From IMG/VR virus record IMGVR_UViG_3300046000_002089, positions 1 through 22,121 of that record: a stretch of DNA of 22,121 bases; one strand, written 5' to 3'. Positions 3,556 through 22,053 of the stretch are shown here, in pieces. The stretch comes from a virus. The stretch's first letter is position 1. Each line of letters begins with the position of its first letter. The notes under the pieces are model-generated. The model saw only the letters and a list, made by a program, of their open reading frames with translations, ran no database searches and had not been told where the DNA came from. The position numbers and the translations under genes are program-made.

Positions 3556-3795
3556 CTATTTACATCTCTTTCTGAAATGATCCCACTCACCACCCTGACG
3601 AACACACTTTTGGTAAGCCTTCTCTTCTTCAGGGGTCATTCGTTTACTTATGTACTTCATAGCAAATGGGATAAAAGCAATTAATATTCTAGTTCCAAAT
3701 TCAATCCAAAAGGCAGGACGCTGTGCAGCAAGATAACCCCCGGCAAACATACCGATGAGGACAAGACTTATTGCAACTATCTCCTGCCAAGACAT
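3556..3795 (-). CDS. Small membrane protein of the lysis/packaging block
   Basis: A 79-residue protein with two hydrophobic segments: about residues 5-24 (EIVAISLVLIGMFAGGYLAA) and 31-48 (IEFGTRILIAFIPFAMKY). A charged tail contains a C-x7-W-x6-C arrangement (KCVRQGGEWDHFRKRC). Its start overlaps the stop of the preceding holin-like gene (TAATG) and it ends 1 nt before terS. The tail resembles that of conserved small phage membrane proteins I have seen near terminases, but I know no experimentally defined role. It could be a holin, an antiholin or an inner-membrane partner in lysis. That the protein is a membrane protein is clear from sequence; the function is inferred from position. Confidence 0.7.
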   Translation of the reverse strand: MSWQEIVAISLVLIGMFAGGYLAAQRPAFWIEFGTRILIAFIPFAMKYISKRMTPEEEKAYQKCVRQGGEWDHFRKRCK

Positions 3796-3965
3796 TAAGC
3801 AGTCTTATTAGGGATAGCCCAAACAAGGATGGGAGTCAGAAGACCGACAACTGTAGCGACTGTCTCCTGACTAATCGTACCCAGATTGATACCGAAGAAG
3901 AAGTTCAGCAGGAAGATGCCCGACATAATCAGAGCAACGAGAGCCTTATCCATCGAAGTAAACAT
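3795..3965 (-). CDS. Putative holin (56-residue membrane protein)
   Basis: A short gene starting at ATG 3965 with GGAGA 7-8 nt upstream, ending in TAATG overlap with the next gene. The 56-residue product has two hydrophobic stretches separated by a short polar turn: KALVALIMSGIFLLNFFF (about 7-24) and VATVVGLLTPILVWAIPN (about 36-53). The ending GLLTPILVWAIPN recurs in small phage proteins commonly annotated as putative holins. Holins open the inner membrane so that the endolysin reaches the peptidoglycan. The gene is three genes downstream of the endolysin in the same operon. The membrane topology is visible from sequence; holin activity is inferred. Confidence 0.7.
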   Translation of the reverse strand: MFTSMDKALVALIMSGIFLLNFFFGINLGTISQETVATVVGLLTPILVWAIPNKTA

Positions 3966-3977
3966 ATTGTATTCTCC

Positions 3978-4337
3978 TTATTTTCCACGAGACTTAGATT
4001 TTACTACAGGAGTTCTTTTAATAGGTTTAAGACCTACTCTACTAGCTTTCGTTTTCTTAGCAAGACTTTTTCTAGCTAATCTTGCTGTACCAGATAAACC
4101 TAGTCTTTCAAGCCTTAATGTTTTTGCAGCAGGAGTACGCTTACTGCGAGTAGTCCACTCCTTGCTCTTATCAGGCCCTCTCCACATACTACCATATTCC
4201 GTAGCATCATACCACTTATCAAAAGATTCCCTTTTTTCTTTTGCAGTAGATGTTTTTGAAGCGTAGAGTTCATCCATTCGACGCCTCTTTACGAATGTAT
4301 TCATATGTATATTACGTGGTACAGAACCTTTAGGCAT
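3978..4337 (-). CDS. Strongly basic hypothetical protein in the lysis block
   Basis: A 119-residue protein starting at ATG 4337 behind a clear GGAGAT site. It is extremely rich in Lys and Arg, especially after residue 55: SKRTPAAKTLRLERLGL and, at the end, KPIKRTPVVKSKSRGK. The C-terminal half looks like a disordered, histone-tail-like nucleic-acid-binding segment; the N-terminal half has a short aromatic stretch (FDKWYDATEYGSMWRG). I do not recognise a family. Base use is visibly more AT-rich (AAA and AGA codons) than in the terminase genes. Possible roles include DNA condensation in the capsid or a virion internal protein; both are guesses. The start and frame are well supported by the tight spacing to its neighbours. 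Confidence 0.65.
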   Translation of the reverse strand: MPKGSVPRNIHMNTFVKRRRMDELYASKTSTAKEKRESFDKWYDATEYGSMWRGPDKSKEWTTRSKRTPAAKTLRLERLGLSGTARLARKSLAKKTKASRVGLKPIKRTPVVKSKSRGK

Positions 4338-4346
4338 ACTTATCTC

Positions 4347-4748
4347 CTACGGATACTTGTTTCTTGGTAGCTCGAAGTGAGGACCGTCTTTAAAAGATTT
4401 CCAGTCTCCACCCCAAGTAATAGGAATATTTTCTAGCTTGGCAGCTTCCTTAACAATAACAGCAAGCTTTGCATACAAGGGCCAGTCCCATTTAATCTTA
4501 CCGTTTAGTGTAACAGCAAAGTCTACAGCCTTACTATAACCATCCTTACCGGGAATATGCCTAGAGTTCAGGGTTGTTGTAGCACCCGCCTTAAGCAACT
4601 TCTTCTGTTCTTCTAGAGTCCTAGGACCACAGGTAATAATGAATCCAAAGGACTTGTCCTTGATAAGACGGGCAGTACGACGAACTACCTTAATAAGATC
4701 CGGGTGGACTCTTTTAAGCTTTGCTTCAGACGAAGAGTTAATAACCAT
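4347..4748 (-). CDS. Endolysin, M15-type L-alanyl-D-glutamate (VanY/T5 Lys-like) peptidase
   Basis: I start at ATG 4748 (133 residues, MVINSSSEAKLKRVHPDL) because GGAGAA lies about 10 nt upstream and the upstream gene stops at 4751; a longer in-frame start would overlap that gene. The zinc-peptidase motif SRHIPGKDGYSKAVDFAV supplies H64 and D76 as metal ligands, and DGPHFELP near the C-terminus supplies the third ligand H124 and the likely catalytic D121, matching the D-x-x-H layout of T5 endolysin (137 residues, nearly the same length). GGDW before this motif is also typical. The enzyme cuts the peptide stem of peptidoglycan at the end of infection. There is no signal sequence, so it needs a holin; candidates lie on both sides. 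Confidence 0.92.
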   Translation of the reverse strand: MVINSSSEAKLKRVHPDLIKVVRRTARLIKDKSFGFIITCGPRTLEEQKKLLKAGATTTLNSRHIPGKDGYSKAVDFAVTLNGKIKWDWPLYAKLAVIVKEAAKLENIPITWGGDWKSFKDGPHFELPRNKYP

Positions 4749-4750
4749 TC

Positions 4751-5023
4751 TTACGGTGTTCTCCAGTGTATATGAGAAGAAATCCACTGAAAAGCATACG
4801 GGATAGCCATACCAATAATAACAATGACACCACCGATATACGCAATCTTTTCTTTTATAGCTGTCTGGAACAACTGGAGTTCTTCTACTTCTTCTTTTAA
4901 TTCAGCAATATCTTTAGCACACTGCTCAGACTGAGGCAGACTTTTAATACCATCTTTCATGTATTCTTGATTGGCTTCAATTCTAGCCAACCTCTCCGCT
5001 ACCTCAATCTGCCACTGTTCCAT
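4751..5023 (-). CDS. Coiled-coil membrane protein, XhlA-like lysis accessory
   Basis: A 90-residue protein with an amphipathic, heptad-like N-terminus (VAERLARIEANQEYM and DIAELKEEVEELQLFQ, about residues 8-54), then one hydrophobic segment YIGGVIVIIGMAIPYAFQW at about 62-80 and a short polar tail. This is the architecture of XhlA/hemolysin-type phage lysis proteins and of some holin partners; it could also be an i-spanin-like protein, although the membrane segment is C-terminal rather than N-terminal. It stops 2 nt before the endolysin start, so the two are translationally linked. Function is inferred from architecture and position. Confidence 0.7.
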   Translation of the reverse strand: MEQWQIEVAERLARIEANQEYMKDGIKSLPQSEQCAKDIAELKEEVEELQLFQTAIKEKIAYIGGVIVIIGMAIPYAFQWISSHIHWRTP

Positions 5024-13159: not shown

Positions 13160-13816
13160 ATGCCTGTCCTATTAAGTAAAGCTAGTAAGATGCCGGGTAA
13201 ATCGTGGTCTCTCCAAGCAGGGGATACTTGTCCCGGTTCAATCAATCCTGTAACCAAGGAAGTCATTGAGGTATGCGCTGATTGCTATGCCAAGACAGGC
13301 TTCTATCGTATGGATAATGTAAAGGCACCGCGCTTATCTAACCGGAAGGATTGGAAGCGTACTGATTGGGCAGATGATATGGTAGCAGCGTTAGATAATG
13401 AGCGTTGGTTTCGCTGGTTCGATAGCGGTGACATCTATACTGCTGCACTAGCACAGAAGATCCATGAAGTAGCAAGGCGTACACCGTGGTGCAACCACTG
13501 GATTCCTAGTAAGTCCTATAACATCCCTAAGATTAGGTATTGGTTGGATAGGCTGAAGGAACTACCGAATGTATCCGTTCGGTTCTCCTCACCTAGTACG
13601 AATGGTGTGTATAATAGTACACACGGATCAGTAGTAGTACAATCGGTTACAGATACAATCTCTAATAGTAAGATGTGCGATGCTTATACTCGCGGTGGTA
13701 AGTGTGGTCCTTGTCGTGCATGTTGGGATAGTTCTATTAATCTTATAGTGTATCCCTTGCACACGCCTAAGAAGAAGATTAATCTTGTTGTCAATCGTGT
13801 TCAGAAAGTGGCGTGA
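13160..13816 (+). CDS. GP88-like cysteine-rich phage protein
   Basis: A 218-residue protein that matches, from memory, the phage family called Gene product 88 (GP88): SWSLQAGDTCPGS near the N-terminus, VCADCYAKTGFYR (C39, C42), RWFDSGDIYTA near 84-94 and RTPWCNHWIPSKSYN with a following LPNVSVRFS strand. Members share the TCPG...CxxCYA layout and have no confirmed activity. A second Cys cluster, KMCDAYTRGGKCGPCRACWD, lies near 173-192. Together with C24, C39 and C42 this suggests a bound zinc or iron-sulfur cluster; the barrel-like strand pattern recalls radical-SAM-type proteins, which is speculation. It is the largest early gene before the primase. Confidence 0.75.
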   Translation: MPVLLSKASKMPGKSWSLQAGDTCPGSINPVTKEVIEVCADCYAKTGFYRMDNVKAPRLSNRKDWKRTDWADDMVAALDNERWFRWFDSGDIYTAALAQKIHEVARRTPWCNHWIPSKSYNIPKIRYWLDRLKELPNVSVRFSSPSTNGVYNSTHGSVVVQSVTDTISNSKMCDAYTRGGKCGPCRACWDSSINLIVYPLHTPKKKINLVVNRVQKVA

Positions 13817-14836: not shown

Positions 14837-14919
14837 CCATGCTGACGATTGAAGTCTGGACCATTCTGGCGCATCCCCTCTTTCTCGATCAGTTGGATCC
14901 GCGCGCTGAAGGAGAAGCT

Positions 14920-15080: not shown

Positions 15081-15455
15081 ATGAAGAAGAAGATTATTCT
15101 ACTCAGTGCATCCTTGCTTGTACTCGCTGCATGTACTGGTGCTGATAGGCCCGCATGTTGGAAGGCTACCACTAAGAATGATAGTACTTGTAACTCATCG
15201 AATGGTGGTGGGTTCTCAATGAAGAGCCCCGACATGAAGGGTAATACAGGTAAGCGGGATAAGAATAAGGATGTAACTACTCCTGCTGCACCTGATACTG
15301 GTAACGAGGATACTTCTGCGCCTGATACTAACGAGAATGATAATCCCTCACCGCCTGAAGAAGATACCAATCAAGATACCAATCCTAACCAACTCAACAG
15401 CAATGATGTAGAAGGTTTCGATCCGTTCGGTGGACTGTATGGTCCCGGTACCTAA
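15081..15455 (+). CDS. Phage lipoprotein, possible superinfection-exclusion factor
   Basis: A 124-residue protein with a textbook lipoprotein signal: MKKK, hydrophobic IILLSASLLVLA, and lipobox LAAC with Cys18. The residue after Cys is Thr, not Asp, so sorting to the outer membrane is expected in Gram-negative hosts. The mature part is low in hydrophobicity and rich in Thr, Pro, Asn, Asp and Glu (PDTGNEDTSAPDTNENDNPS), with two more Cys (C26 and C37) near the N-terminus. It lies in the early operon, not in the lysis block, so an o-spanin role is unlikely. Early outer-membrane lipoproteins such as T5 Llp block the receptor for superinfecting phages; that role is inferred here. Confidence 0.8.
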   Translation: MKKKIILLSASLLVLAACTGADRPACWKATTKNDSTCNSSNGGGFSMKSPDMKGNTGKRDKNKDVTTPAAPDTGNEDTSAPDTNENDNPSPPEEDTNQDTNPNQLNSNDVEGFDPFGGLYGPGT

Positions 15456-15471: not shown

Positions 15472-15642
15472 ATGAAACTCATGGTAGATCCTCCCGATGG
15501 GTGGAGGTATGGATTCCCCAAGGTATGTCCTGAGGAACATAAGCATAGAATCCTTGACTGGATTGTAGAAGTAGGGTATCCCAAATCAGAGGTAGAGAAG
15601 CTTGGTAAGCATTTCTATATCAGGTGTTGGGAGATTATATAG
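15472..15642 (+). CDS. Small conserved phage hypothetical protein
   Basis: A 56-residue protein from ATG 15472, 9-10 nt after GAGGAG; longer upstream starts overlap the lipoprotein and lack a site. It starts MKLMVDPPDGWRYGFPKVCP, a pattern I have met in small phage proteins (K-L-x-x-D-P-P-x-G-W-x-Y-G-F-P), and has a helical end with KLGKHFYIRCWEII. Function unknown. Confidence 0.7.
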   Translation: MKLMVDPPDGWRYGFPKVCPEEHKHRILDWIVEVGYPKSEVEKLGKHFYIRCWEII

Positions 15643-15666: not shown

Positions 15667-15846
15667 ATGAGATGCTACATTTGCAATAAGGATTGTCCCG
15701 ATGGGGAAATTCAGGTAGAGAAAAGAGATGGTGTTTATAAGTTCTCACCATGTAAAGAATGCTCGAATGTTATACAGAGGACAGTCCTATACAAGGAAGT
15801 AGAGAATGAAGAAACACCAACCATGCCCCTGTGGGACATCGAGTGA
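15667..15846 (+). CDS. 59-residue zinc-ribbon protein
   Basis: ATG 15667 preceded by GGGAAAG. The product starts MRCYICNKDCPDGEIQVEKR and has CxxC pairs C3/C6 and C29/C32 (PCKEC), with C10 in addition, spaced as in a zinc ribbon. It overlaps the start of the primase-helicase by 41 nt in another frame. Such tiny zinc-ribbon proteins often sit next to replication genes of phages and may bind nucleic acid or a partner protein. The Cys pattern and conserved ribosome site make it credible although short. Confidence 0.65.
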   Translation: MRCYICNKDCPDGEIQVEKRDGVYKFSPCKECSNVIQRTVLYKEVENEETPTMPLWDIE

Positions 15847-21900: not shown

Positions 21901-21977
21901 CTACCCTTAGCTCAGTTGGACAGAGCAACAGTTTTCTAAACTGTAAGTCGCTGGTTCGAGTCCAGCAGGGTAGGCCA
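21901..21977 (+). tRNA. tRNA-Arg (anticodon UCU), CCA encoded
   Basis: A complete cloverleaf: acceptor CTACCCT/AGGGTAG (7 bp), D arm GCTC/GAGC, anticodon arm ACAGT/ACTGT with loop TTTCTAA giving anticodon TCT, T arm GCTGG/CCAGC with loop TTCGAGT, discriminator G and CCA (21975-21977). It starts on the base after the endonuclease VII stop. It reads AGA, a codon used freely in the AT-rich genes here and rare in many high-GC alphaproteobacterial hosts. Confidence 0.95.
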
Positions 21978-21978
21978 A

Positions 21979-22053
21979 GCTGGCGTAGTTCAGTGGCAGA
22001 ACGCGACCTTTGTAATGTCGATGCCGGGGGTTCGATTCCTTCCGCCAGCACCA
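21979..22053 (+). tRNA. tRNA-Thr (anticodon UGU), CCA encoded
   Basis: Acceptor GCTGGCG/CGCCAGC, D arm GTTC/GAAC, anticodon loop TTTGTAA with anticodon TGT, T arm with two G-U pairs around TTCGATT, discriminator A and CCA (22051-22053). The anticodon stem CGACC/TGTCG has one mismatch (C-T) next to the loop. It follows tRNA-Arg by a single base, so both mature from one transcript. It reads ACA. Confidence 0.93.

What the first reader, a model, noticed from the sequence alone, without database searches (positions are those of the whole stretch)
15081..15455. Early lipoprotein as a candidate superinfection-exclusion factor
It has a clean lipobox, an outer-membrane sorting signal (Thr after Cys), a Thr/Pro/Asn/Asp-rich tail and an early-operon location away from lysis genes. 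Similar early phage lipoproteins mask receptors. Its mature part looks novel.
Basis: partly seen in the sequence, partly recalled or inferred. Interest (0 to 1): 0.5.

Follow-up and report, generated by a model that had tools for sequence, protein, structure and literature searches.

The report
Exported phage lipoprotein, constant C-terminal tail
A small optional gene carried by several unrelated kinds of bacterial viruses makes a protein that is exported into the host's envelope and ends in the same short peptide on a floppy, fast-changing linker, which looks like a bait for a shared envelope target; whether it shuts out rival viruses is untested.

Summary
The lipoprotein gene at 15081-15455 is real: ATG to TAA, 124 aa, lipobox LAAC, Thr at +2, Thr/Pro/Asn/Asp-rich stretch, among the replication genes. 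Relatives occur in at least three phage kinds: this Siovirus-like podovirus, phages with an HTVC027P-like terminase, and T4-like myoviruses. No relative was detected in 50,697 phage records or, by pattern scans, in genomes of 84,980 cellular species. Between groups the tail shows few replacement changes (pN 0.08-0.10) and many silent ones (pS 0.58-0.87). The lipid anchor is not conserved: 13 of 20 full-length members have a lipobox, 7 do not. The gene is accessory: missing from the same slot in two relatives, one an apparently full-length genome without another credible lipoprotein, which argues against a spanin role. I read it as an exported tethered-peptide effector that binds a conserved envelope target. 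Superinfection exclusion is plausible but unproven; receptor-specific masking fits poorly with a tail that is constant across unrelated phages.

The parts
15081..15455 (+). CDS of the exported tail protein (lipoprotein in this phage), 124 aa
   Evidence: homologues
15081..15134 (+). signal peptide (residues 1-17) and lipobox LAAC with Cys18 (15132-15134)
   Evidence: sequence; motif scans
15135..15254 (+). head, residues 19-58: Cys26-x10-Cys37-Asn motif and basic end; C26 and C37 kept in at least 90% of 17 aligned members, lost in L020 and L061
   Evidence: alignments
15255..15389 (+). hypervariable low-complexity linker (residues 59-103); 35-139 residues in 17 members, net acidic in 16 of 17; no confident structure predicted
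15399..15452 (+). conserved C-terminal tail SNDVEGFDPFGGLYGPGT (residues 107-124), directly before the stop codon
14920..15078 (+). partner gene: 52-aa protein without signal peptide, directly upstream (listed ORF could start at 14839); a homologue is directly upstream of the tail gene in the HTVC027P-like group, and unlinked on the L014/L032 contig
15472..15642 (+). downstream small gene (MKLMVDPP...); in L062 it directly follows the partner gene because the tail gene is absent

Best explanation
A phage-encoded, Sec-exported 'tethered peptide'. Shown by sequence: signal peptide with lipobox (here) or an ordinary signal peptide (T4-like relatives); a short head with a Cys pair in most members; a low-complexity, length-variable linker; a near-invariant peptide at the exact C-terminus; presence as an optional gene in unrelated phages. 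Inferred: during infection the protein sits in the periplasm (held at a membrane by lipid in this phage), the linker works as a flexible leash, and the C-terminal peptide docks on a conserved part of the host envelope and changes or blocks its action to the phage's benefit. The likeliest benefit is shutting out competing phages (superinfection exclusion) or otherwise protecting the infected cell's envelope, by jamming a widely conserved envelope machine rather than one receptor.
For: Tail (residues 104-124) under purifying selection between phage groups: pN 0.10/0.10/0.08 with pS 0.58/0.83/0.87 (A-B, A-C/D/E, B-C/D/E), while linker pN is 0.49-0.52. 13 of the 18 tail positions are identical in 17 of 17 aligned members, 12 of those 13 with synonymous codon changes. 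Controls for having searched by tail: two head-only scans found 9 and 8 loci, 17 of 17 on contigs already in the tail set (against 16); partner-gene scans found 3 members that the tail pattern had missed (L061, L068, L069), all ending in GLYGPGT or GLYGPYT at the stop. AlphaFold2 mean pLDDT 50, pTM 0.10, DSSP gave nothing, compatible with a disordered leash. Accessory: tail gene absent between partner and next gene in L062 and L071 and not found elsewhere in those contigs. Unrelated carriers: window and L007 terminases 21% identical; T4-type Gp23 on the same contig as a tail gene, 66% to methylophage Melnitz.
Against: No target, localisation or phenotype is known, and the cellular hosts are unknown, so conservation of a target cannot be checked. 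The lipid anchor is missing in 7 of 20 full-length members, so members may not share one location. The failed fold may reflect a shallow alignment of 17 sequences. Many members were found through the tail, so tail constancy is partly ascertained; the divergent L061 shows that more variable tails exist. The partner gene lacks a neighbouring tail gene in 4 of 7 newly found contigs, so the pair is not obligatory. The tail might instead be a processing or sorting signal.
Confidence: 0.45

Rival explanations
1. Receptor-specific superinfection exclusion lipoprotein like T5 Llp or T1 Cor: the outer-membrane lipoprotein binds the phage's own receptor from the periplasm and stops adsorption.
For: Small lipoprotein with a possible disulphide pair, outside the lysis region, optional. 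Llp is periplasmic and jams FhuA (PMC9586334, abstract and passages).
Against: Cor profile matched only at E 0.1 over residues 1-29. Llp gave a crystal structure of 61 residues (passages); this protein has a long low-complexity linker and no confident fold. The constant tail is shared by a podovirus, HTVC027P-like and T4-like phages, which are unlikely to share one receptor. Lipobox absent in 7 of 20 full-length members.
Confidence: 0.2
2. Lysis accessory (o-spanin-like, or partner of a cell-wall enzyme).
For: In L007, L011, L068 and L069 the next gene downstream encodes an SLT transglycosylase with a signal-like N-terminus (Pfam for L007; the others by similarity). In T4-like L013, L018, L023, L029 and L030 a DPBB (RlpA-like) gene lies about 0.6-1.4 kb upstream (Pfam for L013). 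Pro-rich lipoprotein here; no o-spanin seen in the window's lysis cassette.
Against: G020, an apparently full-length relative, has neither this gene nor another credible lipoprotein by my filter, and L071 keeps the SLT-like gene without the tail gene. The SLT gene was found in 2 of 19 carrier records. Seven members lack a lipobox. Here the gene is about 10 kb from holin and endolysin.
Confidence: 0.12
3. The C-terminal tail is a sorting or secretion signal, and head plus linker are the cargo shown outside the cell, for example through an outer-membrane pore such as the phage-borne CsgG of pelagiphages.
For: Position at the exact C-terminus; Gly/Asn-rich cargo in T4-like members; the nearest cultured relatives of groups B and C belong to lineages in which curli pore genes are reported (PMC9599517, PMC9004378, PMC7029224; passages only).
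Against: No CsgG (PF03783) in 19 of 19 carrier records searched, all possibly fragments. The supposed cargo is the least conserved part. The tail has no hydrophobic segment plus basic end as in PEP-CTERM-type signals (recalled).
Confidence: 0.12
4. Anti-defence protein: the tail inhibits a periplasmic or membrane-bound defence protein of the hosts.
For: Accessory, in unrelated phages, among small genes upstream of the primase-helicase.
Against: No PADLOC match, although that library holds mainly defence, not anti-defence, models. A target under arms-race pressure should drive variation in the tail, which is instead nearly fixed.
Confidence: 0.08

Closest known systems
T5 Llp / T1-phi80 Cor superinfection exclusion lipoproteins
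   Same: Small phage lipoprotein with signal peptide and lipobox, and a Cys pair that could form a disulphide; works like a periplasmic jammer in my reading.
   Different: No homology to the Cor profile beyond the signal peptide; long low-complexity linker; constant C-terminal peptide; lipid anchor optional in the family; spread over unrelated phages.
Lambda Rz1-type outer-membrane spanins
   Same: Proline-rich phage lipoprotein in this phage group (resemblance recalled).
   Different: Not in the lysis cassette here, missing from an apparently full-length relative, no lipobox in T4-like members.
Pelagiphage curli (T8SS) modules reported in both podo- and myoviruses (PMC9599517, passages)
   Same: Accessory envelope-related genes shared between podoviruses and T4-like phages of aquatic bacteria.
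   Different: No CsgG in 19 of 19 carrier records; curlin repeats were not searched for.

Membership tests
Bacterial-type lipoprotein | n-region with Lys/Arg, hydrophobic h-region, lipobox ending in Cys | tested here: met
   MKKKIILLSASLLVLAAC in the window; 13 of 20 full-length family members (10 of 17; L061, L068, L069 read). Pfam LPAM_1 only E 0.99, below cut-off. Lipidation itself not tested.
Cor/Llp superinfection exclusion lipoproteins | sequence match of the mature part to the Cor family (phrog_1119) | tested here: not met
   E 0.1, residues 1-29 (signal peptide) only; six relatives give no Cor match at E 0.1. Llp sequence itself was not compared.
Cor/Llp superinfection exclusion lipoproteins | blocks adsorption or infection by the same or a related phage | not testable with these tools
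   needs expression and plating; host unknown
o-spanin (Rz1-like) | encoded with an i-spanin in the lysis cassette | tested here: not met
   located about 10 kb outside the cassette; gene absent, with no other credible lipoprotein, in an apparently full-length relative
o-spanin (Rz1-like) | needed for the last step of lysis | not testable with these tools
   needs a deletion mutant
tail-peptide family defined here | signal peptide plus C-terminal DxxG[FY]DPxxGLYGPGT or a close variant ending at the stop codon | tested here: met
   21 of 21 distinct sequences end at that Thr (18, one of them cut at its N-terminus; 3). L061 has the variant NDKYDPFTGGLYGPYT and is not hit by the family profile at E 1; it is assigned by position and tail.

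The most novel reading that the evidence does not exclude
The tail is a phage-made ligand for one conserved component of the Gram-negative envelope, carried by unrelated phages on interchangeable anchors (lipid or none) and interchangeable leashes: a new class of exported phage effector in which the working part is a C-terminal peptide of about 17 residues.
Probability: 0.3. Interest if true: 0.7.

Novelty: new variant of a known kind. Interest (0 to 1): 0.42.

Why it matters
If the reading holds, a synthetic peptide of 18 residues should bind the target, so a gene of unknown function becomes directly testable by pull-down. A peptide kept constant across podoviruses and T4-like phages would point to a shared weak point of Gram-negative envelopes, and to gene exchange between unrelated phages with overlapping hosts.

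Tried and rejected
Searched and not found: homologues in phage records (no match at E up to 1, 10 and 10; BLAST masks low-complexity stretches, so a purely linker-like relative would be missed), plasmids, genome contigs by profile patterns (115 candidate stretches, 0 confirmed) and by tail pattern (one hit, L037, where the open frame runs on far beyond the motif, so it is not a C-terminal tail; judged chance). A string of three tails found one phage place at E 3, judged chance. CsgG/T8SS link: 0 of 19 records, unsupported. SLT gene: 2 of 19 records, so not a general partner. PHROG hits phrog_21937, 11835 and 17956 (6e-5 to 3e-4) judged signal-peptide and low-complexity matches because six relatives do not hit them. 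No usable model came out, so no fold search was run. BLASTP of the window and L007 partner proteins found nothing; phmmer linked them weakly (0.001-0.005 from the window's copy, 0.002-0.11 the other way) and a profile hit 7 of 19 records, but 4 of those 7 are in the alignment itself and the other 3 are close group A copies, so these E-values are largely by construction. A short 12-base pattern search was uninformative. Syntenic regions of SIO1, DSL-LC04, HTVC027P and 023Pt_psg01 were read by eye: no tail-like gene seen.

Host assignment failed: only phage relatedness was used (cultured relatives infect Roseobacters, Pelagibacter, Methylophilales). The carriers' GC of 41-53% is above what I recall for SAR11, so SAR11 itself is doubtful.

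Full report
What is there. The ORF at 15081-15455 (+) is a 124-aa protein with a textbook lipoprotein signal (MKKKIILLSASLLVLAAC, Cys18), Thr at +2 and an acidic Thr/Pro/Asn/Asp-rich stretch. It is the only hit of the lipobox filter in the window (1 of 359 start sites; 0 in each of 20 base-shuffled windows). The window is a 22,121-base virus record. Its DNA polymerase is 54% identical to that of Roseobacter phage SIO1 and other Siovirus members (Zobellviridae). The gene lies on the replication strand; the second gene downstream (15667-15846) has a homologue just before the SIO1 primase (39%), and the open frames that I read at this place in SIO1 show no lipoprotein.

A family with a constant tail. 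Scans of IMG/VR with the protein, its alignment and a tail pattern gave 23 contigs carrying the pattern (a looser pattern gave the same 23), with 18 distinct sequences, one cut at its N-terminus. In the 17 full-length ones the last 18 residues read SND[VI]xGFDPxxGLYGPGT (SHD in L020), always followed directly by TAA. Thirteen of the 18 positions are identical in 17 of 17, and 12 of these 13 vary at silent codon positions. Between phage groups the tail has pN 0.08-0.10 with pS 0.58-0.87; the linker has pN 0.49-0.52. Within group A pN/pS is 0.17 for the tail and 0.47 for the linker; within the T4-like and unclassified members 0.20 and 0.52. So selection acts on the peptide rather than on the DNA.

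Is this ascertainment? Partly, since many loci were found by the tail. Three controls: head-only queries found 9 and 8 loci, 17 of 17 on contigs already known to carry the tail. The last residue and the stop position were not part of the tail pattern and are still fixed. Scans with the upstream partner gene found three members that the tail pattern had missed (L061, L068, L069); all three end in GLYGPGT or GLYGPYT at the stop. L061 is divergent (tail NDKYDPFTGGLYGPYT, no Cys pair) and the family profile does not hit it at E 1, so its membership rests on position and tail.

What varies. The linker is 35-139 residues long in 17 members, rich in Thr/Pro/Asp/Asn in groups A and B and in Gly/Asn/Asp in most others; net charge is -8 to -17 in 16 of 17 and +6 in L020. 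AlphaFold2 with 17 sequences gives mean pLDDT 50 and pTM 0.10; DSSP gave nothing. The head keeps a C-x10/11-C-N motif in most members; L020 and L061 lack it. The anchor varies too: groups A and B have a lipobox (13 of 20 full-length sequences), the other seven have an ordinary-looking signal peptide (AHASA) and no lipobox.

Who carries it. Group A: this Siovirus-like podovirus. Group B: L007, L011, L068, L069; the L007 terminase is 54-55% identical to those of HTVC027P and 023Pt_psg01 and 21% to the window's. Group C: T4-like myoviruses; contig G006 has both the tail gene and a T4-type major capsid gene (1 of 14 records searched), 66% to Melnitz; the other contigs of this group are placed by shared neighbour genes. 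L014 (T4-type RNA ligase and kinase-like genes) and L020 are further contexts that I did not classify. GC runs from 41 to 53%. No relative was detected in 50,697 phage records or by pattern scans of genomes of 84,980 cellular species.

Neighbours. A 52-55-aa partner lies directly upstream in groups A and B; identity between groups is 25-29%, phmmer links are weak. A partner homologue lies about 6.4 kb from the tail gene on the L014 contig, and none was found in the T4-like group C records. Of 7 newly found partner contigs, 3 have the tail gene next to the partner and 4 (L062, L065, L066, L071) do not, so the pair is not obligatory. In group B the next gene downstream is an SLT transglycosylase.

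Optional gene. In L062 one base separates the partner's stop from the start of the next gene; the tail gene is missing. Its contig G020 (46,964 bases) overlaps itself at the ends by 3,094 bases at 97.3%, so I take it as an apparently full-length genome of about 43.9 kb. It holds no tail gene. My lipobox filter finds only two short ORFs in it: one of 35 aa inside the primase-helicase gene in another frame, and one of 45 aa that would leave about 8 mature residues; I count neither as a lipoprotein. L071 of group B goes from partner to SLT-like gene without the tail gene, and none was found in its 23.5-kb contig. The gene is therefore dispensable, and an o-spanin role in group A is unlikely.

How it most likely works. 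Shown by sequence: export signal, variable leash, constant C-terminal peptide, gain or loss, spread over unrelated phages. Inferred: the peptide docks on a conserved envelope component and modifies it while the phage replicates. Exclusion of competing phages is the most natural benefit for an optional envelope protein in the replication region, but a receptor-specific mask of the Llp/Cor kind predicts different binding parts in phages with different receptors; here the presumed binding part is the constant one. T5 Llp shows that small periplasmic phage lipoproteins can jam an outer-membrane transporter (PMC9586334, abstract and passages); no homology to Cor was found beyond the signal peptide.

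Novelty. The string GLYGPGT is in 0 of 5.39 million held papers. Searches for Zobellviridae with lipoprotein (two papers, listing only) and for pelagiphage / superinfection exclusion / lipoprotein (123 papers with at least two of the terms, 8 listed, listing only) showed nothing on it. As accessory phage lipoproteins are a known kind, I file this as a new variant: the anchor is optional and the conserved part is a terminal peptide.

Noticed in passing
G020 (L072-L074), record IMGVR_UViG_3300011337_000132: An apparently full-length relative of the window's phage (ends overlap by 3,094 bases at 97.3%) that lacks the tail gene; it could serve to complete the window's gene map.
   Followed up: partly
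L013:4468-4815, L013:10561-11004, L013:7097-7594: T4-like carriers have a DPBB (RlpA-like) protein with a signal-like N-terminus (2e-26), a ferritin/Dps-like protein (3e-18) and a weak heme-oxygenase match (9e-4, below cut-off) near the tail gene.
   Followed up: no
window 13160-13816: A phrog_1392 protein of unknown function; similar-looking proteins sit near the terminase genes in HTVC027P and 023Pt_psg01 (by eye).
   Followed up: no
L065:2690-2836 and L066:3001-3150: The small partner protein also occurs without the tail gene: upstream of a terminase-like gene (L065, by eye) and in a 95-kb phage contig (L066).
   Followed up: partly
window 3556-5023, - strand: Lysis region: holin-like 90-aa protein (phrog_689), M15-type endolysin starting with GTG, two small membrane proteins, but no spanin that I could recognise.
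   Followed up: partly
window 21901-22053: Two adjacent tRNA genes, Arg(TCT) and Thr(TGT), at the right end.
   Followed up: no
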